From Cordylochernes scorpioides (Eukaryota; Arthropoda; Arachnida; Pseudoscorpiones; Chernetidae), in assembly GCA_030710605.1 (NCBI GenBank), contig CP092863.1, forward strand, positions 119,982,700 to 120,046,699: 64,000 bases of DNA. The letters run 5' to 3'. A program made the translations under genes and the position numbers. The notes below the pieces were generated by a model. It saw nothing but the letters and a program-made list of their open reading frames with translations. It was not told where the DNA came from and ran no database searches. Positions 7,592 to 59,124 of this stretch are shown piece by piece; positions within the stretch are counted from its first letter, which is position 1; every line of letters begins with the position of its first letter.

Positions 7592-7779
7592 TATATAATT
7601 AAAAGCTATTTCTGCTTTCAGCTTATACTGCAATGAATAAATATTTATAGAGGGAGGATAGGTAAAAAAATTTACGATATATAGATTTTTTAAATAATAT
7701 GTTGAAAATACATGTAAAAATTGATGTGTGAAAATTTAATATTGATAATTATTAAAAGAAAATAATAATTTAAAAAAAA

Positions 7780-17866: not shown

Positions 17867-20800
17867 TTAAAGTCCGGGGTCGAATCTTTTCGGAGGCTTT
17901 ACCACACGTCCACTTCTAGTGGTGTAGGCAGTGCCTCCTTCATTGTAGTTTCCTATGGGAGTTGAAGTGGAAGGGGCCAACTCTTCAGGACTGAGGTTCA
18001 GGCGGGGAAATTCTCCTGGTTCCCTTTGACCACTGGACTCCGATGATGTCGAGGGGGCTGGATCCAATTGGGGCGAAGACTGGCTGCTCCTTCTCTGTCC
18101 AACAGGATAACTTCTGGGCCGTAGGTGAACTCTGTTCCGTTTTAACATTCGGCCCTCGTTGTTCTGAATGATGTATGATCGAGGCTGGTTGGCTTCTCCA
18201 ATGATGGTAGCTGGTCTCCAGGCATTGCTAGTTTTGGCATTTACCTGTTCACCAGAACTCATTTTAGGAAGTATTTTGGCATTTCGGTCATAATATTCTT
18301 TCATCTTATATTGATTTTCCCTCTTCTGCTGTAGAATGTTTTCCGTGCTAATGAAAGCAGGTTTTAGCTTTGTGGTTTTCATTGGGATCAAGGTTCTCAA
18401 GTTTCTTCCCATTAGCATCTGAGCTGGGGACGGTAGATTATTTGACGGAGTTGTTCTCAGGGCTATTAAACACATATAAGGATCAGTGTTGTCTTGACGG
18501 CATTTCTTAAGTTGCTTCTTTACTGTTTGCACCATCCTCTCCACTAATCCGTTTGATTTTGGGTATCCTGGGCTAGAGGTTTTATGTTCTATGTCCCATT
18601 CATTTGTAAAATTAGTAAAGTCTTGTGATGTAAATGGTGGTCCATTATCAGTGATGATGATCTCTGGAATCCCATGTCTTGCGAAGGTAGATTTCAAAAC
18701 TGGTAGAATCTCTTTTGCTGAAGTTGATGCTACCTTGATGACTTCAGGAAAGCTGCTGTAGTAGTCTACTATTATTATGAATACAGATTGGTCTAGATAG
18801 AAGAAATCAATAGCTACTTTTTGCCAAGGGTAGTCTGCTATTTCGTGAGGTATAAGTGGTTCTTTCCTTTGCGAAGGTTGTGATTCTTGACAAATTCTAC
18901 ACTTATAAACCATCTCTTCTATTTCTCTATCCAGTCCCGGCCAATAAATAGCTTCATGTGCTCTGTTTTTACAAGCAGAGATCCCTTGATGAGACATGTG
19001 TAGTGTTTGCAAGATGCTTTCCCTTTGGACTTTAGGGATGACAAGTCTTTGTCCTCTACAAATCAGGTCTTTCCATATATATAGTTCTTCTTTACAATGC
19101 CAGTAGGGCTTAACAGCATAGTCCACACTTTTCTTATGAATAGGCCACCCATTCAGTATATGATCCCTTAATTTTATCATTTCTTCATCTGACTCCATAT
19201 CTCTGAGAATTTCCTGGTATCTTTTAGTGGTCACCTTCAGATTTAGAGTCATAATGGTGTTCTGGAGATCCAGATCTGAGGTGTCGATGGTTTCCTCTGA
19301 AATTGAATCTCTAGATAGAGTGTCTGCGGTGTGAATCACTTTTCCTGGTACATATTCTAAATTAAAATCATATCGCATCAATTTCAAGACCAGTCTTTCA
19401 AGTCTTGGAGATAATTCCTCTAGTGGCTTTTTTAGTATAGCCAACAAGGGTTTATGATCCGTCTGGGCTGTGAACTTTCTTCCATACAAATGATAGTTAA
19501 ATCTTTGGCATCCATACCAGAGAGCTAAGAGCTCCTTTTCAATCTGGGCATATTTTTTCTGAGTGTTATTCAAGGATGCGGATGCAAAAGCGATGGGTCT
19601 TCCCTCTTGCATCAAGACAGCCCCAAGCCCATGTTGACTAGCGTCCACTGAAAGTGTTACCTTCCGATGGGGGTCAAAGAGGCCAAGAACTGGAGGATTT
19701 GATACCAAATTTTTCAGCTCAATGAATTCTTTTTCTATAGCCTCATTCCATGTCCACAGGGTATTCTTTTTTAGGAGTTGTCTTAACAAGACAGTTTTAT
19801 CTGCCAGATTATGCATGAATTTAGCTAGATAGTTCACAGTTCCCAAAAATCTTTGAAGAGATGTCTTGTCCATTGGTCTTTTTATTTTTTGTATTGCTTC
19901 TAATTTAGATGGATCTGCAGAGATGCCATTCTTGGATATCTCATGTCCAATGAACTTAACTTTTTCTTGGGCCAGTTGCATTTTATTGAATTCAAACTTT
20001 AAATTATTTTTTCTAGCAATTTCCAAAACCGTAATCAGTCTACTATTGTGCTCCGTGAGGGAGTTTCCGTATATTATTATATCATCCATGTATACTTTTA
20101 CTCCTTCAATTCCTGTAAACATACTTTGCATTTTTTTATAGAAAACTTCTGGAGCGCTGCAAATACCAAAAGGTAACCGATGGAATCTGTAATACCCATA
20201 AGGTGTAGCCATTGTTAAAAGGCTAGATGACTTTTCGTCTAACTTGATTTGCCAAAAGGCTGACTTAGCATCAAGTACTGTATAGATGGGTGATTTTGTG
20301 ATATCAGCAATGATGCCTTCAGGGGCAGGAAGTTGACGATATTCCATTTTAATCCATGGATTTAGCTCTCTAGGGTCCATACAGATACGAACCTTTCCAT
20401 TTGGTTTCTTAATGATTACCATCGGGTGTGCCCACTCTGCTGGTTGGTCTACCTTTGAGATGATCTTTTGTTCCTCCATCGATTTTAGCTCCATCTCAAC
20501 TGGTTTTTTCAGTGCAAACGGAATTCGGCGAGCTAACTGAATTCTTGGATGTGCATTTTCTCTCAGGATCACAGAATGCTCTCCAGGGAGTGTTCCGATC
20601 TCATCAAAGACATCTCTGTAGGACTCTATTATCTTTGTAGGTGAAGCATCCATCTTTGTCCTAGTATGGTCCTGTTCCAACGACTCTACTTTTAATATCA
20701 GCTCTAATTTTTTACACGCTGCCAATCCCAAAATTGGTGGAGCTGGCAAATCCACGACTAGAAATTCAAGGATTTCAGATTTTTTCCCAGAGGTACATGA

Positions 20801-20973
20801 AGCCTTGCATTTGCCCCTTATTGGTACTTTTTCTCCTGTATATGAATAAACCGCAATCCCAGTTGGATATATGCAGGGTTTATTTTGCCAATTTTTAATG
20901 GTATCCAATGGCAGGATGTTCACATACTGTGTTGCCAGATCTTTTGTAGCACAGTTTATAACTATATACAACA
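17867..20973 (-). CDS. Gypsy pol polyprotein (RT-RNase H-integrase), N-terminally truncated
   Basis: Open frame of about 1035 codons without internal stop. In order: a linker after the protease (about residues 20-150), reverse transcriptase (about 180-370) with LPFGICSAPEVF and the YMDD box in VKVYMDDIIIYG, RNase H (about 430-560: VDASQHGLGA, TDHKPLL), an integrase zinc region (CRICQ), the integrase core with AIDFF, ITDNGPPF and the NGLVERMVQ glutamate, then a basic/serine-rich tail. The first 17 codons come from the 5' LTR stub and start at GTG rather than ATG, so a normal start is lacking. Protease is absent, so it is not autonomous as read. Confidence 0.9.
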
Positions 20974-20994
20974 CTTATGATTTTTTTTTTTTTT

Positions 20995-22660: not shown

Positions 22661-22938
22661 AGATATACATGTGGTACATTTACTGTAAAAGCAGTCTCTA
22701 ACTACCCACCATGATTATCATGGCCTGTACCACGTGTACTTAAGGTAAATTTGAAAAAAGATGGTTCTTGAGTGTATGCAGACGCAAGTAAAAGTGTCGT
22801 CAAGTGTAGACTGCCCTCTATAAGTAACCTTCAAAATCAATTATCAAGAAATATATTCTAAAGAAAGGTAATTGTCAAACCTAATTTTTAAATATAGGTA
22901 GTAAAATTAAGTACCAAGTTATCTAACAGGAACGTATA

Positions 22939-23373
22939 CACTCATGGACAGCATTTAAGGAAGTGGAAAGTCTTTGATGTCGCCGGTCGTCCATTTTTTT
23001 TTTTCAAGGAGACAGAGACTTTTCACATTTGGCTATATCGTGTATATTCAATAAAGGTCACTGTAATATCTTTCAGAGTTATTGTCTCAATCCCGATATA
23101 CATGCTAAAAGGTACAACTTCCTTAAGTTTTGTCCATGAGTGTATATTCGTTATCTCGTGTGTCTTCAATAAAGGTCACTGTAATATTTTTCAGAGTTAT
23201 TGTCTCTATCCCGATATACATGCTAAAAGGTACAACTTCCTTAAGTTTTGTCCATGAGTGTATATTGGTTATCTCGTGTGTCTTCAATAAAGGTCACTGT
23301 AATATATTTCAGAGTTATTGTCTCAATCCCGATATACATGGTAAAAAGGTACACAACGTAAGTTTTGTCCATG
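22939..23373. mobile_element. MITE-D with tandem units, upstream of tRNA-Arg
   Basis: Starts CACTCATGGACAGCATTTAA after TA. A single full unit runs to about 23150, then two further half-units of ~115-120 bp, each ending CCATGAGTGTATA. tRNA-Arg copy 3 begins 45 bp beyond. Confidence 0.78.
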
Positions 23374-23417
23374 AGTATAGTTTAATATTTCACTATTGTA
23401 TTGGGGTAGTACACCAT

Positions 23418-23490
23418 GGACCTGTGGCGCAACGGATAACGCGTCTGACTACGGATCAGAAGATTCCAGGTTCGAATCCTGGCAGGCTCG
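23418..23490 (+). tRNA. tRNA-Arg (ACG), copy 3
   Basis: Same as the other copies except acceptor GGACCTG, giving an A-C mismatch at position 3-70. The T run follows. Probably a weakened or non-functional copy; anticodon and arms are otherwise intact. Confidence 0.85.
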
Positions 23491-23539
23491 TCTTTTTTTT
23501 TTTTTTTATAATATTTAATATTTAATTTTCACATCTCAA

Positions 23540-24815: not shown

Positions 24816-24871
24816 TGAATATGTAAATTTTCTAATCACACACACACACACACAACACATACACAACACAC

Positions 24872-24885
24872 GCTTGTTCGGCGGT

Positions 24886-24925
<40 letters not shown>

Positions 24926-24970
24926 GGCCCCTGCGCAAGGATGACACGCAAAATCGTGAAGCGTTCCATA
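24872..24970 (+). ncRNA. U6 spliceosomal snRNA copy (likely pseudogene)
   Basis: About 99 nt matching U6: 5' stem-loop GCTTGTTCGGCGGTACATAT, the ACAGAGA box in GATACAGAGAAGATTAGC, the AGC triad, and the 3' internal stem-loop region through GAAGCGTTCCATA. It is bracketed on both sides by CACACA/ACACAACAC microsatellite, with no TATA box or Pol III T run, and differs from the animal consensus at a few places (CAAAATCG for CAAATTCG). Probably a retrocopy landed in an AC repeat. Confidence 0.88.
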
Positions 24971-25057
24971 CACAACACACACACAACACACACATCATCG
25001 AACTCACCATTTATGACCTTGGGAAAATTTGAAGAAAAGAAGTTTTTGATGAAGAAG

Positions 25058-28169: not shown

Positions 28170-31100
28170 TTACATGATGGTAATTGGAGATGGAGGAAAG
28201 AAACCTCGGCGCTGGAGGGTCCTGGACCAGGCGATGAGCGGGTCCTCCACCGCTTCTCCGAGCCCAACCTGGACAAAGTAGCGATAGATTCGCAACTTTG
28301 CCGACGTCAGGATGGAAAGGGCGTCGTCCTCAAGGCCGGACCCGCCGAAGATCCAAGCCTGCAGGTCAGGGGGCCGCCCTATGATGTTGAAGGCCTCTCT
28401 AATGAGAGGCCTGATGGAGGGACAGCACCAGTAACGGTGGCTAAGGAGCGGTCGATGGACCCGCAGGCAGGAAAGGAGGGGCCTACCGAGGCAGGATGGG
28501 CCGGATGGGGCAGGGCGTGGAGGGCCAACTTGAGGGCCGCGTCGGCCTCGTGGCCCGAGTAGGCGCAGCGCCGCAGCGAGGCCCAGTCGATCCTGGATGG
28601 TGGATTGATGGTGGGCGTCCATCTCGCCAGGAATCTGGAGATGGGCGTGGCGGCGAGGCGCGGACGATCCAGGGCCCGTCGGGCTGAGCGGGTCGTGAGG
28701 CCGTTGAGGAACGGCGTAGCCGTCCCTCGCAGCACCACGGCCGTAGCTAAGGAGCTAGATGAGGGCGTAGACTCCGCCCCGAAGCCCACGGCGTTCTCGG
28801 AGGTCAGCCTCCGACAGAAGGCGCCCAGGGCCGCGGCGTCAGCCAGGGCCGAGCGCGTAGGGCGGGCGATGAGGTGTTCCTCCACGATAAGGTCCCGGAC
28901 TCGGGCTCCGCGCCAGCGGGCGGGGGCCAGGAGGTCGGGAGGGCGAAGGAACCGGCAGCCGCCGATGATGGGGAGGTCCAGCAGCTGAGCTGTGGGGACC
29001 GCCCGGTGATTGAGGCCCAGGATGTTGGAGGCCTCCTCCCACAGCTTCAGCAACCGGAGACGGCGGGGCTGGAGACGGGTGCCGTCCGGTGGAGGGTGGA
29101 TCCAGGCCTCACCGCTGTTGCCGCCGACCAGCCAGCTGAAGGCATTTCTGCCCCCGCGGTGCGCGACCTGCACCCCCTTGAGGCAGGCGAGCTGGAGCTG
29201 GGTCGCGAGGTCGAGAAGGCCGAGGCCTCCAATGGCAACTGGCCTCGCCATGACATTGGCGGGAAGCCACGCCGTGTGGTCTTGTCCCCAGACGAACCTC
29301 GCCAGTCGGGCCTGCAGCTTGGCGATGGTCGGGGTGATGGAAGGTATCCATGCAGGTGGTGCTGGATGACAGACCCCACCAGCGTGTTCGCCGCTCTTGC
29401 TCGCCCGACGAGGGAGAGGCCGCGGGTGAAGGGCGTCCATTTGCGGCATGCAGTCTCCAGGAGGCCAGGAGATGCTGTTCCCGGTGGATGACGGTGCTCC
29501 TGGGGGCGATGTCGAGCCCGAGGACCCTGATGGAGGTGGTCGACCAGGAGGCGCCGAGAGGGGAGTCGCCGCGGTTGCGCTAGGCGCCGCACCAGAGGCC
29601 AGCGCTCTTCCGGAGGTTCACGCCGATTCCGGAGGCCTGCCTGTAATCTTCGAAAACGGTCGCCACCCGCTCGAAGTCTCCGTCGCGATGGAATAGGAGG
29701 ACGATGTCGTCGGCGTAGGCGATGACATTGCCCACGCCGAGGGTCAACTCCAGGCGACGTAGCAGCGGCCCCGTGGCGATGCTGAAGAGTGCGGCGCTTA
29801 CGGCGCAACCCTGCCTGAGGCCGTTGAGAAGGGGGAAGGCTGTTGTATGAAAGCCTCCGACCCGGATGGTGGCGTCCGCCCCGGCGTAGAGGATGTTAAT
29901 CCAGGCCATGAAGGCCGGCGGGAGGCGGAGGGATGTTAGCAGGGACTCTAGGAAGCCGCGGTCCAATGAGTCAAAGGCGGACTCTAGGTCGACGCCCATG
30001 ACGGCCAGCGGCGAGCCCAGGGCGGTGGCCTCCTCGATGGCGTCCGTCACCATGGCGATGTTCCATGACGGGGACCTCCCGGGGACGGCGTAGGTCTGGC
30101 ATTCCGGCACAAGGGTCCGCAGGTGGGGCTTGAGGCGCCGGTGAAGGATGGCGGCCAGGACCCTGTAGTCGGCCGAGGGCAGCGCGACGGGCCTGTAGCC
30201 ATCAAGGCCGCGACCTCCGCGGGCCTTGGGCACGAGGCAGATGGAGCTGCGCCGCGTCGACCGAGGCAGGGCACCGCGGAGCCGTGATGCTGCGAACACC
30301 CGGGCCAGAGCTTCCGCGAAGAAGTCCTCGCTGAAGGCGACGAGGAGCTCGCACGGCAAGCCATCCCAGCCGGGGGCCTTTCCGCGAGGGAGGTGCTCGA
30401 TAGCGTTGGCGATCTCGCTGGGGCTGATGTCCGGCCGGTGAAGCGGGTCCTCCTCACTCAGCTCGCGGGTGGTGGTGGGCGCGCTGCTGGCGATGAAGGC
30501 AGCTCCCGCAGCTGGATCGCTGGTGGGACGGGCGAAGCGGGGCTGGAAGGTCGCGAATGCCCTCCGCCGAAGCTCGGGGCCCTCGATGATGTTATCCTGC
30601 TCGTCCCTGATGACGCTGACCGGGCGTCGGAGGCGGATGGCGCGTGCTAGGTCCGGCAGCGATGGGTAGTCGGGCCCGGATGGAGGAGGCCTCGAGCTGC
30701 GCCGCGATGTAACGTCTCGCCCTGTAGACGTAGCTGTCGTTGGCAGCGTGGCGTGGGTCGTGCAGGGATCTGGCCTCCGCCAGCAGCCCCGCCTTGATGG
30801 AGGTCCACCTATCCCAGAAGGTCCCGTCGTCGTCATCGTGCGCTGTGTCTTCCTCCAACTCCCGGATGTAGCCAGCCAGATGTTCGAGAGCAAGGCCCGA
30901 GCGGAGCATCGCGGCCAAGCGAGGCTGGGTGGGAGAGGAGACGGCGGTGGTGGGCGGGCCCACCTGGAGCAGCACGAGGCGGTGGTCCGAGAGGTGGTAG
31001 TGGCTGGTCGCGTAGGTGGACACGCGATCCAGGACTCCAGCAGGGACGAGGATCCGGTCCAGGCGGTTGGATTCGACTTGGTCGCCGTGCATGGAGACTC

Positions 31101-31635
31101 TGGTGGGCAGGTGGGCGGCGTCGAACTGGGTGGCCACGTCGACCAGCGCGACCAGGTCCAGAAGAGCGGCGAGGGCATCCGATGATGAGGGGCCCCGATC
31201 CCTGATATTAAAGTCGCCGATGATCCAGCAGGCCCCCTCCTCTTCCTGTGCCGCTGTCGCCGCCAGGAGCTCCAGTTGTTGGTTTCTCTCCCGGGGTTCA
31301 TGCGCCAGATGAACGGCGATGGCCGTCATTTCCTCGCCGTGGACATCTATTGTTGCCAAGGCGATGTGGCCCGGCCACAGGATACGCTGTTGTAGCACGG
31401 CTACGCCTGGTCCGAAGACGCAGGCGAGTCCGGATCCCGAGATGGCTACGGGATGGGCCAACACAACAGCGCCGTAGCCGAGGCAGAGGTCTTGGCCGCT
31501 GCCCAGATGAAATGCGTTTGTCTCCTGGACAAACGCGATGTCCACGTGATGTTGCCTGAGTAAATGACAAAGGGCAAGGCTCCTCCCCCGAGTGGCGAGC
31601 CCTCGCGCGTTGATGGTGGCGACGCGGTAACTCAT
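28170..31635 (-). pseudogene. Non-LTR ORF2 (APE endonuclease-RT-Cys/His), frameshifted
   Basis: ATG at 31635, within the ATGA overlap with ORF1. 31635-~30690: apurinic-like endonuclease with INARGL, FVQET, IIGDFN, and the SDHRLVL catalytic His motif. ~30690-29580: reverse transcriptase with GKAPGWDGLPCELL, YRPVALPSADYRVL, LNGLRQGCAVSAALF and the YADD box in VIAYADDIVLLF. 29449-~28400 and 28622-28170: thumb and C-terminal region with a Cys/His motif ending HRYWCC. At least two frameshifts and no RNase H domain seen; this fits an R1-like plan. Confidence 0.85.
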
Positions 31636-33148
31636 TGGGGCCGTCCTTCACGCAGCACCTTCCTGGTCTTCTGGAGGGTTTTGCGGATGGTGGAGTTGGA
31701 GTCTGGGCACAAGGCCTTGATGGTTTCGTGCAATTTTTCGAGGGCGGTGAACTGTTCCTTTGTTAGCGTGGGCGCTCGCCTCTTCATGGTGGTCTCAGAG
31801 GTGAGGAGCTTCTGAGCCTCTTCGCAGTTCAGGACGGGCAGCTTGTCCCAGTCGATGGAAGGGTTGGGGGACTTCCCAAGGTGCTCCAGCATCTGTTCGA
31901 GTGCGGCCTTTCCCCGGGCAGGCGTGGCGGGAGGTGAGGACAGCTTTTTCACCGACATCTCGTTGTCGAGCGGAGGGATGCGAGGCTCGGGGGACCGCAG
32001 GGCAGCCAGGGGAGCAGGGTCGGCAGCAGGGGCGGGGTGGGTGAGATCCATCTGTTCGGCAGGCTGGTGTGCCGAGGGGATCGCCTGAGCCTCGGCCGAA
32101 GTCTTCGCCAGTTGGACAGGGGACGCCGGTGTTGCGGGCGCAGGTGCCGGCTTCCTTGGTCGCTGAGGAGGAGGGAGGGGGGGGGGGGCCTTGCGTCGGT
32201 GGGAGACGCTGCTTGCCTGGGGCTGCCGTTCCCTTGCCTGGCGAGCGCTGGGCAGTTGGCTCTGCGGTGGCCCTGTTTACCGCATTTGGAACACTTGATT
32301 CCAAAAGAGAGGAAGGCCGACAGGGTGTCTCCCTTGGAGTGGATGGTCAGACGGGTGGGCAGCGTCTCCAGCCTTACGCCCTCGCGGAGCAGGATGAACG
32401 CTTTCCGGCGGCCGTCGGTGAAGGTGAACTCGCCCATTTTGACCAGGATGGGGGCGATGGAGGTGACCTTCCCAAATTGGCCCAGGGCGGTCGTGATGGT
32501 GCTGTCCTCAACAAAGCCAGGCAGGTTGGCCACGACTATGCGCTCCGCCCTTTTGCGGAAGGGGAAGACCCTGAGGGACGTACCCTCGATTTCCAGGCCG
32601 TCCGCGACCAGACGGTTCGCAAGTTCCTTGTCCGCAAGACCCACGATGAAGTGGCCGTTCATTCGATGGAACTGCGTGATGCTCTTTGGCCCCCCGAGTA
32701 GCGTGCTCATGGCCTTGAGGTAGGAGTAGTCCGGGATGTCTGGGCACAGCTCCACGAAGACGTAGTTCTCATGGTTGGTAGTGGCCTACCTCGCCCTGGC
32801 GTCGGCGATGTTGGCGCGCGTCGCCTTGATTTCCTGGGGCGGCATTGACCTCGGCCCTGTTGTCCGCTTCTGCTGCTGGGGGCCGCGTTTCTCAGCAGGC
32901 CTGCTTGCCTGCTTTGTGCCGTGCTCAGGTGTTGAAGAGAGGCGCCTTTTCTTGCTCTTCACAACGGTGTAGGCGTCGTTGGCGTCGACCTCCGCCATCT
33001 CGCTGTCGGCCCAGTTGAGCGAGGCCGGGTCGGCTAAATTCTCGCTGGAAGAAGCAGCAGTCGGCGGCGCCGTGACGTCACCCCGCGCGGCAGCCAGCGT
33101 TCCATGCACCTCGCGCGCCGGCGGGCTTGCATGTGTTCGATATTCCAT
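31632..33148 (-). pseudogene. Non-LTR ORF1 (gag-like), frameshifted
   Basis: Three open segments in different frames. 33148-32786: basic, disordered N terminus. 32755-~32180: RRM-like/gag region with IVVANLPGFVEDSTITTALG, then one CCHC knuckle CSKCGKQGHRRANC. 32051-31632: C-terminal domain ending EGRPQ. One frame change lies next to a run of G at about 32177-32188. Its stop overlaps the ORF2 start as ATGA (31632-31635), the termination-reinitiation arrangement used by many non-LTR elements. Role: RNA-binding particle protein. Confidence 0.8.
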
Positions 33149-37033: not shown

Positions 37034-37388
37034 TATAACTAAATAAAAAAATCCATTTAAACACTAGTTAATAATTAACTACTCAAGACAGAGAGTTTCC
37101 CCTACTACATATTTAACCATTATTTGTTTAACTAATTGACGGAGCCTTTTCTGAGAGAGAAAGTTTAATTAAACAAACTACTCGTTCTCTTAACCAGTAA
37201 CTAGACACACATATATCTCAACGGAACCTGTGTCTTCTGGATTGAATGTCTTTCACTGTTGGTGGGAGATATGCAAAACATATAAAACATATATACATAT
37301 ATACACGCACACAAAAAGTACAGCTTTCTTAAGTTTTCTCTATGAGTGTATTTTAATATTTCACTGTTGTATTGGGAGAGGATACTAT

Positions 37389-37461
37389 GGGCCTGTGGCG
37401 CAACGGATAACGCGTCTGACTACGGATCAGAAGATTCCAGGTTCGAATCCTGGCAGGCTCG
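37389..37461 (+). tRNA. tRNA-Arg (ACG), copy 4
   Basis: Canonical 73-nt cloverleaf, anticodon ACG, T run after. A degraded MITE-D end (CTATGAGTGTA) lies ~40 bp upstream. Confidence 0.92.
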
Positions 37462-37653
37462 TTTTTTTTTTAAATTATTATTTTATTTTAATAATTATCA
37501 ATATTAAATTTTCACACCTCGATATTTACATGTATTTTCAACATGTTATTTTTAAAATCTATATATCGTAAAGTTTATGTCCTACCCTCCCTCTAAATCA
37601 ATTTTTATTCATTGCAGTATAAGCTGAAAGCAGAAATAGCTTTTAATTATATA

Positions 37654-38345: not shown

Positions 38346-38811
38346 GTGAAACTTCCAAGCTACAGTTTTAATAAGTTATCCATCTTCTCTCACTATTTGT
38401 GTTACTGAGGAAATAGAGTTCCAAATGATGTTATAAAAAAACAAAGTTGTTACAACACAGAATTTCACACATTACTTTCAACTCACGATGTTGTTGTTTA
38501 CCATTGTTTTCATCTCTATAGAGTTAAACCCATTATTTTAAAAAGTCTATTGTTTTCTATAAGTACAGTAGAAACAATATAAAAAATGGTTACACAACTA
38601 TTATAAAAATGCTTCAATGGCCTCCTATTCTTGCAAAATTCCAACCTCGCCAGCGAGTACAGGTAACCAAACGGGACTCTGGTACAAGTGTAAGTGCAAA
38701 GTCGAACTGCTTTTCACGTGTGTAGACATATGGTAGGCGCGTAAATATTTAGAAGTGAAAATTAAATATTGATTAAACGTACAAAAATGAAAGAAGAAGA
38801 AAAAAAAAAAA

Positions 38812-38884
38812 CGAGCCTGCCAGGATTCGAACCTGGAATCTTCTGATCCGTAGTCAGACGCGTTATCCGTTGCGCCACAGGCCC
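38812..38884 (-). tRNA. tRNA-Arg (ACG), copy 5
   Basis: Canonical 73 nt on the minus strand; T run after the 3' end; MITE-D (38924-39113) begins 40 bp upstream. Ortholog of copy 1. Confidence 0.92.
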
Positions 38885-38923
38885 ATGGTATCCTATCCCA
38901 ATAAAATAATGAAATATAAAAAC

Positions 38924-39113
38924 ACACTCATGGATAAAACCTAAGTTGTGTACCTTTTAGCATGTATATCAGGATTGAGACAATAGCTCTGAAAGATATT
39001 ACAGTGACCTTTATTGAAGACACACGAGATAATCAAGTGTGAACAGTTAAAAAAAAAGCAGACTATCGGCGACATCAAATACTTTCAACTTCCTTAAGTT
39101 TTGTTCATGAGTG
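38924..39113. mobile_element. MITE-D copy, right arm
   Basis: Single-unit MITE-D with ACACTCATGGATAAAACCTA and CCTTAAGTTTTGTTCATGAG ends; ortholog of 5943-6130. Confidence 0.75.
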
Positions 39114-39317
39114 TATATCAACATGCATCCTGCCCTGGTAATCATGGTGGGTAGAGGGTTGTACTGCACTTTTCATGATGAGTAGATCAAAATATAGTTC
39201 CTTATACTACATACTAAATTCATCTCAAGCCTTTCTTTTGAACTGAAACAAAAGGACCTGTCACATGTTTTACTATTTTCAATCAATTTAAACATTCTTT
39301 AGAAAAGAAAAAAAGGC

Positions 39318-44854: not shown

Positions 44855-44902
44855 AATGGGATAATATAAATAAATAAATAAATAAAAATAGAAAAAAAAA
44901 GA

Positions 44903-44975
44903 CGAGCCTGCCAGGATTCGAACCTGGAATCTTCTGATCCGTAGTCAGACGCGTTATCCGTTGCGCCACAGGCCC
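44903..44975 (-). tRNA. tRNA-Arg (ACG), copy 6
   Basis: Canonical 73-nt cloverleaf on the minus strand; MITE-D (45011-45234) starts 36 bp upstream. Lies just outside the visible part of the inverted repeat. Confidence 0.92.
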
Positions 44976-45010
44976 ATGGTATCCTGTCCCAATAATAAAA
45001 TATTAATATA

Positions 45011-45234
45011 CACTCATGGACAAAAGGAAGTTGTACCTTTTACCATTTATATCGGGATTCAGACAATGACTCTGAAAAATATTTGATATACATTAACCTT
45101 TATTGAAGACACACGAGATAGCCTAGTTTAAAAAAATTGAATCTTTCTCCTTCAAAAAAAAAAAAAAAAAAAAAAAAAACAGACGACCGATGACATCATA
45201 AACTTTCCACTTCCTTAAATATTGTCCATGAGTG
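45011..45234. mobile_element. MITE-D copy
   Basis: CACTCATGGACAAAAGGAAG to CCATGAGTG with TA flanks, single unit with an A run in the centre. Confidence 0.75.
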
Positions 45235-45279
45235 TATATTTACAGTTATATATATACCATTTCTTAACACACAGCAATA

Positions 45280-51239: not shown

Positions 51240-51597
51240 GAAACTTCCAAGCTACAGTTCTATTTATTGATCCATTACATATAAATCCTCATTTACTCTC
51301 CTGTAGAAGAGTTTGTGAGAAATACCCGGAAGCTAGAGAAGAATATGTAAATAAAGCTAGAAACTTATCCTTGAAGGTCTTTTTGTTTATTATTTATAAC
51401 AGCATTTCCATCTATATTTTGGTCATAGATTTGGCCTATCCACTTTGTCAGCTAAACACCTCTTTGGTGAATTGTGAAAATTCACATTGTAAATAATATT
51501 GCTAATTATTGGTACTATTACTGTTGTTTATACCCTCTTCTACTCTGAGAATCTGTTATAAGACCAAAAGGTCTTAATAAAGTTTTCGTTGTGTTTG
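51240..51597. other. Non-LTR 3' end-like and unassigned sequence
   Basis: About 51295-51345 carries CTCCTGTAGAAGAG...CCGGAAGC (degenerate hairpin motif). About 51555-51595 is AAGACCAAAAGGTCTTAATA with TTCGTTGTG, an I-like non-LTR 3' end. Confidence 0.45.
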
Positions 51598-52261
51598 GTT
51601 ATCTCGTGTGTCTTCAATAAAGGTCACTGTAATATCTTTCAGAGTTATTGTCTCAATCCCGATATACATGGTAAAAGGTACAACTTCCTTAAGTTTTGTC
51701 CATGAGTGTATATTGGTTATCTCGTGTGTCTTCAATAAAAATTAGTGTAATATCTTTCAGAGTTATTGTCTGAATCCCGATATACATGCTAAAAGGTACA
51801 ACTTCCTTAAGTTTTGTCCATGATTGTATATTGGTTATCTCGTATGTCTTCAATAAAAATTAGTGTAATATCTTTCAGAGTTATTGTCTGAATCCCGATA
51901 TACATGCTAAAAGGTACAACTTCCTTAAGTTTTGTCCATGATTGTATATTGGTTATCTCGTATGTCTTCAATAAAAATTAGTGTAATATCTTTCAGAGTT
52001 ATTGTCTGAATCCCGATATACATGCTAAAAGGTACAACTTCCTTAAGTTTTGTCCATGATTGTATATTGGTTATCTCGTATGTCTTCAATAAAAATTAGT
52101 GTAATATCTTTCAGAGTTATTGTCTGAATCCCGATATACATGCTAAAAGGTACAACTTCCTTAAGTTTTGTCCATGATTGTATATTGGTTATCTCGTATG
52201 TCTTCAATAAAAATTAGTGTAATATCTTTCAGAGTTATTGTCTGAATCCCGATATACATGC
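51598..52261. repeat. MITE-D-derived tandem array (left part)
   Basis: About five to six ~115-120-bp units, each with ACTTCCTTAAGTTTTGTCCA and TTATTGTCTGAATCCCGATA. Adjacent units are nearly identical, so amplification is recent. It is interrupted at 52262 by the BEL element and continues at 57709. Confidence 0.82.
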
Positions 52262-52595
52262 TGTTGGATCCTATAGTTAATAATTTCCTTAAATTCAATT
52301 TTATATATGAAAATTAAGCCAAGATATTCTAAATTCAATTGTACAATATAAATCTTTAATATGTAAATTTTAAAGCAATCAACATGTATGCAAATTTACA
52401 GTTTGGTTAATTAATTAATAGGTTTTTTGTTTTCTCTCTCTCTCTACCACTAGTATCAAAATCTAAGTAAAATTCATGTATTCAAAATCATGTGGTAGCT
52501 ACTTATAACTCTAAAACCCAAAGAAAATAAAACAATTCAAGACAAGTGGCAAAGTGCTTCTTAGTATCTTTTACTGAACATTCATGCCACGAACA
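52262..52595 (+). repeat. 5' LTR of BEL-type element
   Basis: 334 bp, TGTTGGATCC to CACGAACA; contains a CT-rich tract and AATAAAACAATTC as a possible polyadenylation signal. Confidence 0.9.
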
Positions 52596-52674
52596 TTATG
52601 GTCCCTCATCGAGCCGGATACTTTAAAAAATTAAGGTAAGCCATTTGAAAACTTAAAATTCTTAAAATAAAGTC

Positions 52675-55600
52675 ATGCCCAAATCTGAAGTTAAAATTCG
52701 GCACAAATTCAACTTTATTATTCAGGAAATAAAGGATCTGGAATCAAAGAATAAAGCTATTGTAGAATCCAAAAACATACATAGATTAAAGCTATTCCAA
52801 CAAAAAGTTAATGAAAGTGAAATTAGCCTAAATCAAGTTATCAACACATTATTAGAATCAGAGTTAGATGATAAACAATATGACGATTATTCAAAAGCCA
52901 AAGAGGATATTTTTAATATGTTGGTGTCTATTGAGGAAGCTTTATCTTTGATTGAAACCAAAGAAAATATTCATAGTGATAAACAACTGCCCGAATCCAA
53001 TGTTAATTTACCTAAGATAAATTTACCCATTTTCAATGGTGATTCAGCCAATTGGCTTAGTTTTAGAGAAATATTTAACTCCACCATTAATTCAAATCAA
53101 ACACTAACGGAAATACAAAAATTTCAATATCTAAATGCATCTGTTAAGGGTCCTGCGGAAAAGTTGATTCGGGGTTTTCCCATTTCTGACAAAAACTACC
53201 AGCAAGCATGGGATACCTTATGCCATAGATTTAATAACAGAAGAGAATTGGCTTTTTCACAAATCAACAAAATATTCTCCATAAGGCCATTAAAATCTAT
53301 TTCGGCTGGTTCTCTCTATGAAATCCTTGATGTTTGCAATGAAGGCATTAGAAATCTCTCAGTGCTAGGACTTGAGAAAAACACATTAACAGATCTAATC
53401 CTGATCAATTTTTTTGAAAAAAGAATCGGTGAAGCCCTCAGGAAAGAATGGGAATTAACCCTTCAAAATGAAGAATATCCAACATTTGAAAACTTTGTGA
53501 ATTTTTTAGAAAAACATGCTAGAAGCCTGCAAGGTATGAGAATTCCTTTGTTCCAGGAACAAAAAACCTCTAGCAAAAATATGATGGCTCATGGCCTTTA
53601 TGTCAACAAAGGTCAAAATTGTATTTTATGTCATCAAATTCATAAACTAAATGACTGCCAGAGATTCATAAATCTTCCCTTGCCTAAAAAATGGGAATTA
53701 GTTAAAAAACATAAACTTTGTCAAAATTGCCTTAGAGCAAATCATGAGATATCCAAATGTCTCATCACATCAAGATGTAAAAACTGCAAGCAGAACCATC
53801 ATACTCTTCTGCATGAATACAACTCTGAACCATCCATTCCACAACCAACAACCTCTCAAGAGATGTTGATTTCAACAAATACCATCTGTAATGCGATGCC
53901 TTTGGAAACGGAAACAAATATTCTACTGTCAACAGCCCTTATTAAAGTCAAGGCGAAGGATGGCTCATTTGTGCTATGTAGAGCATTAGTGGACAATGGG
54001 TCCCAAATAAGCCTAATTTCAGAACAATGTTGCCACAAGTTGGGACTTGAAAAAAGGAAAAATTCTTATACACTAAAAGGTGTAGGTGACATTGTTGTCA
54101 ACAGGACAACATCGCAGGTTGAAATAGATTTCACCCCACATCATAATGATCAATTATTTTCTGCCAGAGCATTTGTGGTTGGGAGGGTAACTGCAGACCT
54201 TCCAAACTTCCAAATTCAGTCAGCAGACTTTCCTCATTTAGAAAATTTGCTCTTGGCAGACCCAGAATTCTATGTCACCAAGCCCATAGACCTAATTTTG
54301 GGTGCAGATACCTTTGTAGAAATAATTCTAGGTCATAAAACAGATTTAAAACCCCGTCCTATAGCACTTAATACCAAGTTAGGTTGGCTTGTTTCTGGGA
54401 GAATCCATTCAACTATTAAGTCGAATACTTCGGTAATCAATCACTGTACCACTGAACTTGATTCCAGCATAAGAAAATTCTGGGAACTTGAAGATGTCCC
54501 AATTTCTAAGGCCCAGTTGGGTATAAAGAATGCCCCATCTCCAAGTCTACAAGAGTCCATTCAGAACTCTCCAAGTCTAAAGGAGTTCACTCAGAACTTT
54601 CCAAGTCTGCCGGGGTCCATTCAGACCTCTCCAAGTCTACCAGACTCTGTTCAAGGGTCACCGTCTCTAACTTTGAGCCTACAGAGCTCCAAACACAACT
54701 CTCCAACCCCCTTACAAGTATCAGTTCACAGCCTGAAAGAGGCCATGTCCCCTTTGGTCGAAATGCCATCAAGCCCTGGGTGCTCCAAGCAGATTCCAAT
54801 TCCTATAGAAGAAGACTCTATAGAGAGCCAGAACCGAGTTGATAATCTGCCATCCTACCCGATGAGCCCAGAGCAGAGTTACACTCTCTCATCGGCTTCT
54901 GTTGAAGATTTCAAGGCCCAAAGTGGGCCCAAGTCCCCTACATCTCCCACCAGAGGTTCAGAGAGTTGCCGATGTTCTGGGGATTATACAGAGCCACAGA
55001 TGTCTCAGAACTCCAATTTTTCATGCTCCTCTATAGAAGAATCTGAAGATAATTCAAGTAAATCTGAAGAAAATCTAAGTAGATCCGAAGATAATTCAAG
55101 TAAATCTGAAGAAATTCCAAGTAAATCTAAAAAGTCACGTATCTCTAAGTTAACTCCACAAATTACTTCTAAACAAAACCAATTACTTCCTTCTGAATCA
55201 AGTCAACCATCCACTCCAGAACAACCTCTCGCTTCTCAGTCAAGTGAACCACTCTCATCTAAGAAAGAAACTTCGATTATTCCTAAGATAAAGCCACCAC
55301 CCTATTATAGGCGAAAACGTCAACTTCCTGCTGAGAAAACTTCATGGGATGAACCAATTGAATCAGATATAAAGTCAAATTGGAATAAATTCCAAACTCA
55401 ACTATCGTGCCTAAAGGAAATCAAAATACCAAGATACCTGAACAGTTCATCTTCTGAAATAGAAGAATTACAACTACATGGATTTTGTGATGCATCCCTT
55501 AATGCTTATTCAGCAGTTTTTTACTTGAAAACTAAATTCAAAATTCAAAAGATCAAAATCAATCTGATAACCTCAAAAACTAAGGTTGCACCATTAAAGA

Positions 55601-57252
55601 CCATTACAATTCCAAGACTTGAACTAAGTGCAGCATTGCTTTTGGCTCAACTGAATCAAGTCATTCTTGAATCATTTCCTTTTCAACCTGACAAAACCTT
55701 TTTATGGACTGATTCACAAATCTGCATAGATTGGATAAGATCAGATGCCAGCAGATGGAAAGCCTTTGTTTCGAACAGAGTGTCGTCAATTCAAAATTTG
55801 ACTCAAATCACTGATTGGTTCCATGTATCCAGTCAAGATAATCCAGCTGATTGCGCATCAAGAGGAATCATGCCTCAAGACTTGGTCAATCATAGAATTT
55901 GGTGGCGGGGTCCTATTTGGCTTCAAGAAAATAATGTTCGATATATTCCTTCTTCACCAACCCAAGTAAATCTCAATATCATTCAAGAAGAAGTCGGTGA
56001 GGGTCAAGTGTTGGATCAAACAACCTTAATTCAAAATTCAGAAACTATGTTAAATCTAGAATTCATTGTAAGGTATTCCACAATGACCAAATTGATCCGA
56101 ATCACAGCTTGGTGTTGGAGATTCTACTACAATTGCCTCTTCTTTGATCCAATTCGTCAGAAAGGACCTTTGACAACAAGAGAATTAACAAAGGCAATTC
56201 AAGTCTTAGTCAAATCAATTCAGCAAGTTGAATTCTGCACGGAAATAAAATTACTGAAGTCAAACAAGCAACTACCTCTGTCCAACAAGCTAACTTCTCT
56301 AAATCCCTTCTTAGACACTCAAGGACTTCTAAGAGTTGGAGGTAGACTCAAGTATTCCTATTTAAATGAAAATCAAAAATTCCCTCTCTTACAACCAAAA
56401 TCCCCACGCCAGGAATCACTTATCAAAAATCTCTTAACTGATAATGCCGACATTCCTGAGACTATTGATGAGAATCAAGAAGATTCTTCAATTTTAGAAA
56501 CCACTTTTGTCATTGAAGACGAAGAGTCTAACAAAGATATCGGAACTCCAAAGATTGAAATCTCCGAAGTTTCGGTTATTGATAAATCGGAAGGCAAATA
56601 TTCGAAAGAACCAGTGGTCAGTGTAGAAGCTCTGGATAAGAAAGAACTGTGCCATGATGACTCAGCTCACCTCAATGTAGTTGAAGCTGATCTTAATCGA
56701 CCTAAAGAGGCTACCAGTGGCATAATCAATGTTTATACAGAAGCTAATGAATCGTCAAGCAAACAGAAAGTTGTACCTGTTGAAATTGTGGATACATCAA
56801 CAAAGGATTATCTACAGAGCGGTGAAAAGGCTAAATTATCCCGCTGGAAACCCATCGATTCTCTATGCTTGGAAGACGTCAAGGAATCTGAAGACGACGA
56901 TGAAAATTACAGTTCATCGGCATATATAGAATGGCCAGAAATCTTGAAGAGAGAAGTCTTAAGACCCGTAGCTTTAGAAAAGGCAGTCAATCTGGAAGAT
57001 TTTGAGAAGGCGGCAGAAAGTCGACAACTCTCCAAAGAACATTTAGAGGAATCGACCGAACAAGGCTCATGCATAAAAGCTGAATCAAAAACTTGGGAAG
57101 ATCCTATTGAATCCGACTTAGCAGCCGCAGAGTCTGATAATCCAGCAGTTCCCGAAAGAGAACTGGCCAACGAATCTGAAAATCTCATCCAAGATTCACC
57201 TCAATCGGATACTCAAAGATGGAAGCTGATTCCATTACCTTTCAAACAATGA
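52675..57252 (+). CDS. BEL/Pao polyprotein: gag, protease, RNase H; no RT or integrase core
   Basis: Uninterrupted 1525-codon ORF with ATG at 52675. Residues ~1-115: coiled-coil-like gag N terminus. ~115-290: BEL gag core (LPIFNGDSANWLSFREIFN). ~318-385: CCHC-like knuckles (CILCHQ, CQNCLRANHEISKC, CKNCKQNHHTLLH). ~425-580: aspartic protease with LVDNGSQISLIS, then LGADTF and GWLVSGR. ~615-905: Ser/Pro/Glu-rich repetitive segment where reverse transcriptase should be. ~925-1110: RNase H (HGFCDASLNAYSAVF, SKTKVAPLKT, WTDSQICIDW, NPADCASRG, WWRGPIWL). ~1220-1260: start of the integrase zinc region (LLRVGGRL). ~1265-1525: acidic low-complexity tail in place of the integrase core. RT and integrase would have to come from another element. 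Confidence 0.9.
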   Translation: MPKSEVKIRHKFNFIIQEIKDLESKNKAIVESKNIHRLKLFQQKVNESEISLNQVINTLLESELDDKQYDDYSKAKEDIFNMLVSIEEALSLIETKENIHSDKQLPESNVNLPKINLPIFNGDSANWLSFREIFNSTINSNQTLTEIQKFQYLNASVKGPAEKLIRGFPISDKNYQQAWDTLCHRFNNRRELAFSQINKIFSIRPLKSISAGSLYEILDVCNEGIRNLSVLGLEKNTLTDLILINFFEKRIGEALRKEWELTLQNEEYPTFENFVNFLEKHARSLQGMRIPLFQEQKTSSKNMMAHGLYVNKGQNCILCHQIHKLNDCQRFINLPLPKKWELVKKHKLCQNCLRANHEISKCLITSRCKNCKQNHHTLLHEYNSEPSIPQPTTSQEMLISTNTICNAMPLETETNILLSTALIKVKAKDGSFVLCRALVDNGSQISLISEQCCHKLGLEKRKNSYTLKGVGDIVVNRTTSQVEIDFTPHHNDQLFSARAFVVGRVTADLPNFQIQSADFPHLENLLLADPEFYVTKPIDLILGADTFVEIILGHKTDLKPRPIALNTKLGWLVSGRIHSTIKSNTSVINHCTTELDSSIRKFWELEDVPISKAQLGIKNAPSPSLQESIQNSPSLKEFTQNFPSLPGSIQTSPSLPDSVQGSPSLTLSLQSSKHNSPTPLQVSVHSLKEAMSPLVEMPSSPGCSKQIPIPIEEDSIESQNRVDNLPSYPMSPEQSYTLSSASVEDFKAQSGPKSPTSPTRGSESCRCSGDYTEPQMSQNSNFSCSSIEESEDNSSKSEENLSRSEDNSSKSEEIPSKSKKSRISKLTPQITSKQNQLLPSESSQPSTPEQPLASQSSEPLSSKKETSIIPKIKPPPYYRRKRQLPAEKTSWDEPIESDIKSNWNKFQTQLSCLKEIKIPRYLNSSSSEIEELQLHGFCDASLNAYSAVFYLKTKFKIQKIKINLITSKTKVAPLKTITIPRLELSAALLLAQLNQVILESFPFQPDKTFLWTDSQICIDWIRSDASRWKAFVSNRVSSIQNLTQITDWFHVSSQDNPADCASRGIMPQDLVNHRIWWRGPIWLQENNVRYIPSSPTQVNLNIIQEEVGEGQVLDQTTLIQNSETMLNLEFIVRYSTMTKLIRITAWCWRFYYNCLFFDPIRQKGPLTTRELTKAIQVLVKSIQQVEFCTEIKLLKSNKQLPLSNKLTSLNPFLDTQGLLRVGGRLKYSYLNENQKFPLLQPKSPRQESLIKNLLTDNADIPETIDENQEDSSILETTFVIEDEESNKDIGTPKIEISEVSVIDKSEGKYSKEPVVSVEALDKKELCHDDSAHLNVVEADLNRPKEATSGIINVYTEANESSSKQKVVPVEIVDTSTKDYLQSGEKAKLSRWKPIDSLCLEDVKESEDDDENYSSSAYIEWPEILKREVLRPVALEKAVNLEDFEKAAESRQLSKEHLEESTEQGSCIKAESKTWEDPIESDLAAAESDNPAVPERELANESENLIQDSPQSDTQRWKLIPLPFKQ

Positions 57253-57374
57253 GAATTGTAATCTTAGCTACATAGTCGGAATCAATTAGTCCAGCATCTA
57301 TACTATTGGAACTCTTTTTTTATTTTTATTTATTTTTTTTATTTTCTGGTCATCTCTTCCCAGCCGGGGGAGTA

Positions 57375-57708
57375 TGTTGGATCCTATAGTTAATAATTTC
57401 CTTAAATTCAATTTTATATATGAAAATTAAGCCAATATATTCTAAATTCAATTGTACAATATAAATCTTTAATATGTAAATTTTAAAGCAATCAACATGT
57501 ATGCAAATTTACAGTTTGGTTAATTAATTAATAGCTTTTTTGTTTTCTCTCTCTCTCTACCACTAGTATCAAAATCTAAGTAAAATTCATGTATTCAAAA
57601 TCATGTGGTAGCTACTTATAACTCTAAAACCCAAAGAAAATAAAACAATTCAAGACAAGTGGCAAAGTGCTTCTTAGTATCTTTTACTGAACATTCATGC
57701 CACGAACA
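57375..57708 (+). repeat. 3' LTR of BEL-type element
   Basis: 334 bp, near identical to the 5' LTR; differences at the AAGATATT/AATATATT site and one G/C near the T run. Confidence 0.9.
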
Positions 57709-58110
57709 CATGCTAAAAGGTACAACTTCCTTAAGTTTTGTCCATGATTGTATATTGGTTATCTCGTATGTCTTCAATAAAAATTAGTGTAATATCTTTC
57801 AGAGTTATTGTCTGAATCCCGATATACATGCTAAAAGGTACAACTTCCTTAAGTTTTGTCCATGAGTGTATATTGGTTATCTCGTATGTCTTCAATAAAG
57901 GTCACTGTAATATCTTTCAGAGTTATTGTCTCAATCCCGATATACATGCTGAAAGGTACAACTTCCTTAAGTTTTGTCTCCATGAGTGTATATTGGTTAT
58001 CTCGTGTGTCTTCAATAAAGGTCACTGTAATATCTTTCAGAGTTATTGTCTCAATCCCGATATACATGCTAAAAGGTACAACTTCCTTAAGTTTTGTCCA
58101 TGAGTGTATA
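57709..58110. repeat. MITE-D-derived tandem array (right part)
   Basis: Continuation of 51598-52261 after the BEL insertion: three to four units, the last ending CCATGAGTGTATA at about 58110. Confidence 0.82.
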
Positions 58111-58269
58111 TGTAAAATAGACAATTTACATACCATTCTATAAATTTCTGACAACCGGGTTGACATAAACGATGCCCCTCTAAATGTCCTGTAGATAACT
58201 GTGGAAGCATTTTGCTGTAGTTGATTGTGAAGATTTCATTGGAACCTTTGTGGATCTCATGGAATAAAG

Positions 58270-58322: not shown

Positions 58323-58451
58323 TACTTCTCAGTTTACCAAATCTGTATTGTGGCTTTGTCACCGACCCGAAGCCGATAGTTTGCTGCGACGTTCAATAGA
58401 TGGCATCTAGCTTTGACGTCTATTTTGATGAGATATAGAGAGAGAGATTCA

Positions 58452-58914
58452 GGTGATCGCAGGTGGTTGCTCTAAACCGAACGTCACCCCGATCGGTACC
58501 TAGGTCGTCTGCGGACAATTTGATGCCCCTGTATTTCCTCAAACAGGTTGAGTGTGAGACGCGCGACGGCAACAACGCTCCAGTTGCTGTCTAGCACGCC
58601 CCGGGAAGGTCTGATCGCGGACCTCACGAGGGAGCCCGCTATTCGCACCGCGAAATAACGGGGGCACGGCAGTATCGTTGCAATCTATAGGCGGGATTCT
58701 GACTTAGAGGCGTTCAGTCGTAATCCCTCGGATGGTAGCCATTGGCCGTTCGACCAAGCGCACGTACCAAATGTCCGTACCTGCGGTTCCTCTCGTACTG
58801 AGCAGGAATACTACGGCCCGCATCAGTAGGGTAACCTTTCACACGATGGTCTAAACCCAGCTCACGTTACCTGTTGGTGGGTGAACAATCCAACGCTTGG
58901 CGAATTCTGCTTCG

Positions 58915-58948
<34 letters not shown>

Positions 58949-59124
58949 GAGCGACGTCGCTATGAACGCTTGGCCGCCACAAGCCAGTTATCCCTTTGGT
59001 AATTTTTCTGACACCTCTTGCTACAAACCCCGAATATCAAAAGGATCGATAGGCCACGCGGTCCGTCTTCGTACTGAAAATCAAGATCAAGCCAGCTTTT
59101 GCCCTTTCACTCCACGCGAGATTG
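58452..59124 (-). rRNA. 28S rRNA 3' segment (probably a pseudogene)
   Basis: Minus strand reads the last ~670 nt of 28S: GTGTCAGAAAAATTACC, AGGGATAACTGGCTTGTGGC, GCGACGTCGCTCTTTGATCC (sarcin-ricin side region), GAAGCAGAATTCGCCAAGCG, CAGTACGAGAGGAACCGCAG, ATTACGACTGAACGCCTCTA. Some normally invariant positions differ (ACCAAAGGGATAAC for ACCACAGGGATAAC; a short deletion after GAAAGGTT), so it is likely non-functional. Upstream 28S is absent: the segment begins at a non-LTR element. Confidence 0.88.

What the first reader, a model, noticed from the sequence alone, without database searches (positions are those of the whole stretch)
52675..57252. BEL/Pao element with an intact ORF that has lost RT and integrase and gained two new segments
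The ORF is 1525 codons without a stop. Gag, zinc knuckles, protease and RNase H are in order, but the RT position holds ~290 residues of Ser/Pro/Glu-rich repeats and the integrase core is replaced by ~260 acidic residues. Both novel segments touch a PIESD motif (WDEPIESD, EDPIESD). LTRs are almost identical and the target duplication is perfect, so this structure was recently mobile while encoding gag, protease and RNase H but no polymerase. A protein-coding yet polymerase-less retroelement family that uses another element's RT/integrase is unusual.
Basis: partly seen in the sequence, partly recalled or inferred. Interest (0 to 1): 0.85.

Follow-up and report, generated by a model that had tools for sequence, protein, structure and literature searches.

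The report
Polymerase-less retrotransposon family in a pseudoscorpion
A jumping gene in a pseudoscorpion genome has swapped its copying enzyme (reverse transcriptase) and its integrase for long, probably unstructured stretches, yet exists in many copies beside a close relative that still has both enzymes, so it most likely spreads by borrowing them.

Summary
Observation confirmed. An LTR element (52262-57708; 334-bp LTRs, 2 mismatches; target duplication CATGC; exact empty site in neighbouring 118-bp repeats) holds a 1525-codon ORF: BEL/Pao gag, zinc knuckles, protease and RNase H region, with an S/P-rich segment (SP) in place of RT and an acidic segment (AC) in place of integrase. Protein matches name the species Cordylochernes scorpioides. 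Twenty other retrieved proteins on 15 scaffold lengths combine this gag/protease (partial in five) with SP, RNase H and AC. P0024 and P0027 keep RT and integrase; P0024 differs from the window copy at 5% of gag/protease residues. SP and AC also occur apart (SP with integrase, RT with AC). A second BEL family (gag 23-26% identical) lacks RT and carries AC at up to 81%. SP and AC matched no named species but this one; their source is unknown. Replacements are conservative in gag and protease, not detectably in RNase H, SP or AC. Best reading: a coding BEL/Pao parasite mobilised in trans. Shared LTRs, Ka/Ks, expression and mobilisation are untested, because the whole-genome search did not complete and other copies are gene models. 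WDEPIESD is native, so the PIESD link is partly wrong.

The parts
52257..52261 (.). target site duplication CATGC, left copy
   Evidence: the joined flanks match neighbouring 118-bp units exactly
52262..52595 (+). 5' LTR, 334 bp, TG...CA
   Evidence: 99.4% to the 3' LTR
52599..52619 (+). putative primer binding site (TGGTCCCTCATCGAGCCGGAT); likeness to the 3' end of tRNA-Tyr is recalled, not tested
   Evidence: sequence; the 8 tRNA genes in the window are Arg (6), Thr and Gly
52675..57252 (+). single ORF, 1525 codons, gag-protease-SP-RNase H-AC
53032..53460 (+). DUF1759 gag domain (residues 120-262)
   Evidence: E 4.8e-29
53620..53829 (+). Cys/His zinc-knuckle region (residues about 316-385)
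   Evidence: motif positions; motif type recalled
53977..54111 (+). aspartic protease core (LVDNGSQ at residue 438)
   Evidence: (weak, below cut-off)
54535..55335 (+). SP segment (residues 621-887), Ser/Pro/Glu-rich, replaces the RT; holds 30-bp and 21-bp tandem repeats
55336..56094 (+). RNase H region (Peptidase_A17), motifs HGFCDAS, IPRLELS, LWTDSQ, NPADCAS kept (catalytic role recalled)
56095..56391 (+). arm before the integrase, kept from the autonomous element up to FPLL
56392..57216 (+). AC segment (residues 1240-1514), net charge -37, stands where P0024 has residues about 1483-1763 (integrase)
57217..57252 (+). remnant C-terminus RWKLIPLPFKQ and stop; seems to join two KLI-bearing stretches of the autonomous C-terminus (inference)
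   Evidence: P0033 keeps the DUF5641 region at this point
57366..57374 (+). short purine-rich tract before the 3' LTR
57375..57708 (+). 3' LTR, 334 bp
57709..57713 (.). target site duplication CATGC, right copy
51595..58111 (+). 118-bp tandem array split by the insertion (51595-52261 and from 57709 on)

Best explanation
It is a protein-coding, non-autonomous derivative of a resident BEL/Pao retrotransposon of Cordylochernes scorpioides. It makes its own gag, protease and RNase H-region polyprotein, and most likely borrows reverse transcriptase and integrase from the autonomous sister element, in particles built of near-identical gag. SP and AC probably entered by template switching during reverse transcription. 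They persist as in-frame, probably disordered filler that keeps the single ORF open, and are reshuffled between elements by further template switching. Shown: anatomy, clean insertion, multicopy state (protein level), co-resident RT+IN relatives, SP and AC found both apart and together. Inferred: trans-mobilisation, co-packaging, template switching, filler role.
For: Multicopy: 20 of 198 proteins, besides P0001, hold family-A gag/protease (covered under 60% in five), SP sequence (shortened in P0015), RNase H and AC, on 15 scaffold lengths. Partner: P0024 and P0027 carry RT, integrase zinc domain and DUF5641; P0024 differs from P0001 at 31 of 606 residues in gag/protease and 11 of 340 in the RNase H stretch. 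Joins: SP lies between KNA and KTSWDEPIESD, AC between FPLL and RWKLI. Module mixing: P0020 and the first copy in P0008 have SP with integrase kept; P0026 has RT with the start of AC; P0033 has AC with DUF5641 kept. SP length varies in steps of the 10-residue repeat: 251, 271, 291 or 301 residues in 11 of 11 type I rows of other proteins without the P0009-type insert. Recent: 2 of 334 LTR differences and an exact empty site. Replacements among copies are conservative in gag+zinc+protease (0-2 of 2000 neutral draws reach the value) and neutral-like in SP (1033-1076 of 2000).
Against: No DNA of any other copy could be had, so shared LTR, PBS and packaging signals are untested. The other copies are NCBI gene models, many fused with neighbours or spliced by the predictor, so their single-chain anatomy may be partly artefact; indels in proteins are in frame by construction. 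RNase H (444-666 of 2000) and AC (198-381 of 2000) show no detectable conservative bias, nor do the zinc stretch (4 replacements) and the arm; RNase H against P0024 is, if anything, less conservative than expected. Mean pairwise divergence of gag (3.8%) is as high as that of AC (2.9-3.9%). Trees do not separate RT-less from RT-bearing copies, so selection on gag may have acted in autonomous elements. No expression data.
Confidence: 0.8

Rival explanations
1. Transducing retroelement: SP and/or AC are pieces of host coding sequence taken up as mRNA, as in maize Bs1 or acute transforming retroviruses (recalled), and may still act in the cell or in the particle.
For: AC is shared by two distant BEL families (77-81% in the better matches). 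P0196 and P0198 carry C-terminal parts of AC and run about 140-150 residues past the P0001 join, almost identical to each other there apart from gaps, so AC may once have been part of a longer sequence. Open frame far beyond chance.
Against: No independent host gene was seen in three protein searches, which were limited by length window and listing. P0196 and P0198 are probably fused gene models, with no Pfam match in that part. Replacements in SP and AC are not distinguishable from neutral. The AC model has no confident structure.
Confidence: 0.3
2. Interfering element: the RT-less polyprotein co-assembles with that of the autonomous element and lowers its transposition, so copies are kept by the host, not by their own spread.
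For: Gag/protease is near-identical to the autonomous one and its replacements are conservative. Retrieved RT-less copies outnumber RT-bearing ones (20 against 6 with at least 66% of the RT), though the query favoured the former.
Against: The one copy readable as DNA bears clean retrotransposition marks and the others lie on many scaffolds, which fits spread of the element itself; no functional data.
Confidence: 0.1
3. Decayed remnants or assembly artefact: isolated losses of RT and integrase with no family.
For: Only a single copy could be read as DNA here.
Against: The same joins recur: AC left join in 43 of 198 proteins, SP right join in 31 of 198 (up to 4 edits allowed, P0001 counted); inserted sequence is shared, not merely deleted.
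Confidence: 0.02

Closest known systems
BEL/Pao autonomous elements (P0024 and P0027 in the same species; P0041 from an unnamed source)
   Same: gag DUF1759, zinc knuckles, protease, RNase H region, order, short target duplication
   Different: P0001 lacks RT, integrase domains and DUF5641; SP and AC stand in their place
TR-GAG and other plant non-autonomous LTR elements that keep gag (features recalled; only the listing and abstract starts were seen)
   Same: LTRs, coding gag, no RT/integrase, presumed trans-mobilisation
   Different: animal BEL/Pao backbone; keeps protease and RNase H region in one ORF; carries two added coding segments
Maize Bs1 (Elrouby and Bureau 2010 not held; one passage in PMC7264820 was seen)
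   Same: LTR element with foreign coding sequence; its loss of pol is recalled
   Different: no host source gene identified here; many copies, RT-bearing partner, several module combinations
CM-gag of Culex pipiens (only its title was seen, in the reference list of PMC3286476)
   Same: arthropod element with a gag gene only, reiterated in the genome
   Different: added segments and superfamily of CM-gag not checked
LARD/TRIM elements and the 38 Culex elements with tandem repeats (passages of PMC3286476)
   Same: non-autonomous, intact LTR signals, internal tandem repeats
   Different: those lack coding potential; this keeps a 1525-codon ORF

Membership tests
BEL/Pao (autonomous definition) | DUF1759-type gag, zinc knuckles, aspartic protease | tested here: met
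   (gag strong; protease below cut-off, but that stretch is 96% identical to P0024); zinc motifs
BEL/Pao (autonomous definition) | Pao RNase H region | tested here: met
   Peptidase_A17 E 4.4e-36, first 31 profile positions missing
BEL/Pao (autonomous definition) | reverse transcriptase | tested here: not met
BEL/Pao (autonomous definition) | integrase zinc domain, core and DUF5641 | tested here: not met
BEL/Pao-derived non-autonomous element | LTRs, target duplication, purine tract, PBS-like site | tested here: met
   PBS assignment to a tRNA not tested
BEL/Pao-derived non-autonomous element | multicopy with an autonomous relative in the genome | tested here: met
   (protein level)
BEL/Pao-derived non-autonomous element | LTRs shared with the autonomous partner | not testable with these tools
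   The genome search unanswered in all 11 tries
Gene-transducing retroelement (Bs1-like) | inserted sequence matches an independent host gene | tested here: inconclusive
   searches showed none; P0196/P0198 are only a candidate longer form
TR-GAG-like | gag only, no protease or RNase H (definition recalled) | tested here: not met

The most novel reading that the evidence does not exclude
A split, multi-component retroelement community: RT+IN+, RT-IN+ (SP with integrase), RT+IN- (RT with AC) and RT-IN- forms of one BEL/Pao element live together, share gag, and complement each other in mixed particles, while swapping two non-polymerase modules, one of which (AC) has also passed to a second, distant BEL family.
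Probability: 0.15. Interest if true: 0.85.

Novelty: new variant of a known kind. Interest (0 to 1): 0.62.

Why it matters
RT-less but coding LTR elements are known from plants. Here one is well formed in an animal BEL/Pao lineage, and its presumed helper, intermediate module combinations and a segment shared by two distant families are all seen in one species. This makes trans-mobilisation, module exchange by template switching and the fate of added coding segments testable in one genome. It also warns annotators: gene models named CCT6A and TRAF4 in this species contain stretches of this element.

Tried and rejected
Single-copy accident and assembly collapse: rejected by recurring joins. PIESD as a shared sign of both novel segments: rejected for the first, because WDEPIESD is in P0024. 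A viral source: scans of viral contigs with P0001 and P0196 gave no relative. The P0198 search of solved structures gave one match at E 0.78, and Pfam gave nothing for the extension in P0196 and one weak match (E 0.21) in P0198; I take these as chance. Structure models of AC (mean pLDDT 35.2, 10 sequences) and of P0198 (34.3, 2 sequences) were too poor for a fold search, so none was run; low confidence fits disorder, but the alignments are shallow. Conservative-replacement test of AC between families A and B: 32 to 202 of 400 simulations reach the observed value, and 20 to 69 of 400 gave no stop, so no clear sign of selection. In the same call gag/protease against P0024 was reached by 2 to 8 of 400 and RNase H against P0024 by 317 to 333 of 400. 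Trees of gag/protease and RNase H do not separate RT-less from RT-bearing copies. Dropped rows: one search was given 32 copies and kept those with at least 90% coverage and identity (14 for gag+zinc+protease, 11 SP, 25 RNase H, 29 arm, 26 AC); replacements needing more than one base change were left out (12 of 90, 12 of 44, 1 of 37, 1 of 14 and 16 of 82). A first run with a looser filter also put gag and protease above expectation and SP and AC near it; its 76 RNase H replacements were probably inflated by divergent copies such as P0018 (78% there). One search dropped copies under 95% coverage or 85% identity. Two figures in my notebook (47 and 120 residues, entry 2) are replaced by 37 and 102. 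Papers: listings (one search found none); abstract and section list of PMC3726574; passages of PMC7264820 and PMC3286476. No paper on this element was seen in these searches; the library lacks most subscription journals.
Full report
What is there. The window ORF 52675-57252 reads 1525 codons without a stop. It lies between LTRs at 52262-52595 and 57375-57708, each 334 bp, TG...CA, with 2 differences. The element sits inside a 118-bp tandem array, with CATGC repeated on both sides. The joined flanks match array units without a mismatch at 5 places in the window and with 1-2 mismatches at 5 more. This is a clean and recent retrotransposon insertion. A short purine-rich tract precedes the 3' LTR and a PBS-like site follows the 5' LTR; the tRNA-Tyr likeness is recalled, not tested.

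Protein anatomy. Pfam gives DUF1759 gag (E 4.8e-29), aspartic protease matches below cut-off, and Peptidase_A17 (E 4.4e-36), the Pao region which I take, from general knowledge, to be RNase H; no RT, integrase or DUF5641. Four RNase H motifs and the protease LVDNGSQ remain; their catalytic role is recalled. Comparison with P0024 fixes the joins: SP, residues 621-887, stands where P0024 has residues about 785-1138 (RT), and AC, residues 1240-1514, where P0024 has about 1483-1763 (integrase). WDEPIESD is present in P0024 and so belongs to the parent. SP is 24% Ser and 13% Pro with two tandem repeats; AC has net charge -37; both fall on the disordered side of a charge-hydropathy rule, while gag, protease and RNase H fall on the folded side. 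AlphaFold gives AC a mean pLDDT of 35.2 on a shallow alignment.

Whose genome. The 39 best rows (P0002-P0040, 76-98% identity over the aligned part) are all named Cordylochernes scorpioides (lineage). The species rests on these matches; the window itself is unnamed.

A family. One search listed the best 120 of 295 hits (7983 scored candidates), one search listed 107 hits (6464 candidates) and one search listed 15 (7990 candidates). With P0001 and overlaps removed this gives 198 proteins. Of these, 80 match at least one of ten tested segments above 60% identity. Twenty besides P0001 join family-A gag/protease, SP sequence, RNase H and AC in one chain, on 15 distinct scaffold lengths; gag/protease is covered under 60% in five (P0016, P0019, P0021, P0022, P0023) and SP is shortened in P0015. 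With up to 4 edits allowed, the AC left join is found in 43 of 198 and the SP right join in 31 of 198, against 4 of 198 for the integrase left join and 3 of 198 for the RT right join. The queries contained SP or AC, so these numbers favour RT-less copies. Clusters at 90% identity hide further copies (P0013 stands for 12 sequences, P0006 for 7, P0012 for 6).

Autonomous partner. P0024 and P0027 carry integrase zinc domain, DUF5641, the Pao region, gag and an RT match. RVT_1 is under its curated cut-off in both, rve reaches only E 0.0039 in P0024 and is not listed for P0027, and the gag domain of P0027 is cut short, probably by the gene model. P0001 and P0024 differ at 31 of 606 residues in gag/protease and 11 of 340 in the RNase H stretch. 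Six of 198 proteins carry at least 66% of the family-A RT: P0024, P0026, P0027, P0035, P0034 and P0008 (its second copy).

Modules. Two left joins of SP exist: type I (as P0001) and type II, which keeps 37 residues of the start of the replaced RT region and only the last part of SP; both share the right join. Of the 27 SP rows from other proteins, 13 are type I and 14 type II. Eleven of the 13 type I rows measure 251, 271, 291 or 301 residues, steps of the 10-residue repeat; the other two, P0009 and P0019, carry 102 residues in place of about 19. P0020 and the first copy in P0008 have SP but keep the integrase; P0026 keeps RT but runs into AC; P0033 has AC followed by the kept DUF5641 region. 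The P0001 end RWKLIPLPFKQ then looks like a further deletion between two KLI stretches (inference). Separate and joint occurrence of SP and AC is what recombination between co-packaged genomes would give; fused or spliced gene models could mimic some cases, so each needs DNA.

Second family. P0099-type proteins have DUF1759 and DUF5641 but no RT or Pao RNase H (P0099 scanned; the others from the precomputed domains). In four of them the gag segment is 23-26% identical to P0001. Thirteen proteins with at least 70% of this gag/protease and the B-specific segment lie on 12 scaffold lengths; 12 of the 13 hit AC, 7 of 13 at 77-80% over 73% of its length, and P0106, outside that set, at 81% over 86%. 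Thus AC sits in two distant BEL families. P0138 has the family-B gag and a third, unrelated Lys/Glu-rich stretch before the integrase domains.

Origin of the segments. None of the 120 proteins from another or an unnamed source matched SP or AC at E 1e-6. In one search the matches outside C. scorpioides covered at most 13% of the query. All 15 hits were C. scorpioides. P0196 and P0198 share C-terminal parts of AC and continue 154 and 138 residues further, almost identical to each other apart from gaps, with no convincing domain match there. They are the best lead to a longer source but are probably fused gene models. The searches were bound by length windows, so a short or very long host gene could have been missed.

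Selection. Only proteins of other copies were available. Using window codons for the neutral expectation, replacements in gag+zinc+protease are conservative (mean BLOSUM62 0.41 against -0.25 to -0.37; 0-2 of 2000 draws reach it; gag alone 1-7, protease alone 9-40). SP equals expectation (-0.47 against -0.46). RNase H (444-666 of 2000), the arm (333-391), AC (198-381) and the zinc stretch (only 4 replacements) are not distinguishable from it. Gag against the unnamed-source relative P0041 gives 0 of 400, a control that the test has power at long divergence. So the gag/protease frame looks selected; for the rest there is no evidence either way. Against a simple reading, gag is no less divergent among copies (3.8%) than AC (2.9-3.9%), while zinc, protease, RNase H and most of SP lie at 1.2-1.7% (SP end 3.2%). 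Because RT-less and RT-bearing copies mix in the trees, part of the gag signal may stem from autonomous ancestors.

Mechanism. The most likely course: the RT-less RNA is translated to a gag-protease-RNase H polyprotein; particles also take up the autonomous polyprotein through near-identical gag; that RT and integrase copy and insert the RT-less RNA. Particle mixing, use in trans and template switching are inferred. Changes in SP repeat number fit slippage during reverse transcription.

Verdict. It is a new variant of a known kind: coding, RT-less LTR elements have precedents in plants (TR-GAG listing; Bs1 passage) and a gag-only element in Culex (reference title). New to me are the BEL/Pao setting with kept protease and RNase H region, the module series, and one segment shared by two distant families. 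None of the paper searches showed a report of this element.

Noticed in passing
window 5939-6322, 7714-7909, 22933-23534, 37313-37529, 38735-39117, 44856-45252: Dispersed repeat in which the 118-bp unit and/or its flank adjoins a tRNA-Arg(ACG) gene; six such tRNA genes in 64 kb suggest a tRNA-carrying mobile repeat.
   Followed up: partly
window 58426-58992 (-): Fragments of large-subunit rRNA just downstream of the split 118-bp array.
   Followed up: no
window 17867-20974 (-): Long ORF with RT, RNase H and integrase domains, probably of a gypsy-type element.
   Followed up: no
window 28170-32755 (-): LINE-like set of ORFs with zinc knuckle, endonuclease and RT.
   Followed up: no
window 24870-24975 (+): U6 snRNA match over the full model.
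   Followed up: no
P0138 (retrieved protein, no window place): Family-B BEL gag with a third, unrelated Lys/Glu-rich segment in place of RT and RNase H, integrase zinc domain kept; hints that such replacement is recurrent in this genome.
   Followed up: partly
P0011, P0037 (retrieved proteins): Gene models named CCT6A and TRAF4 contain stretches of this retroelement, probably annotation fusions.
   Followed up: no
window 4649-5761 (+) and 8939-9625 (-): Two ORFs with a weak match to DUF7418 below its cut-off.
   Followed up: no
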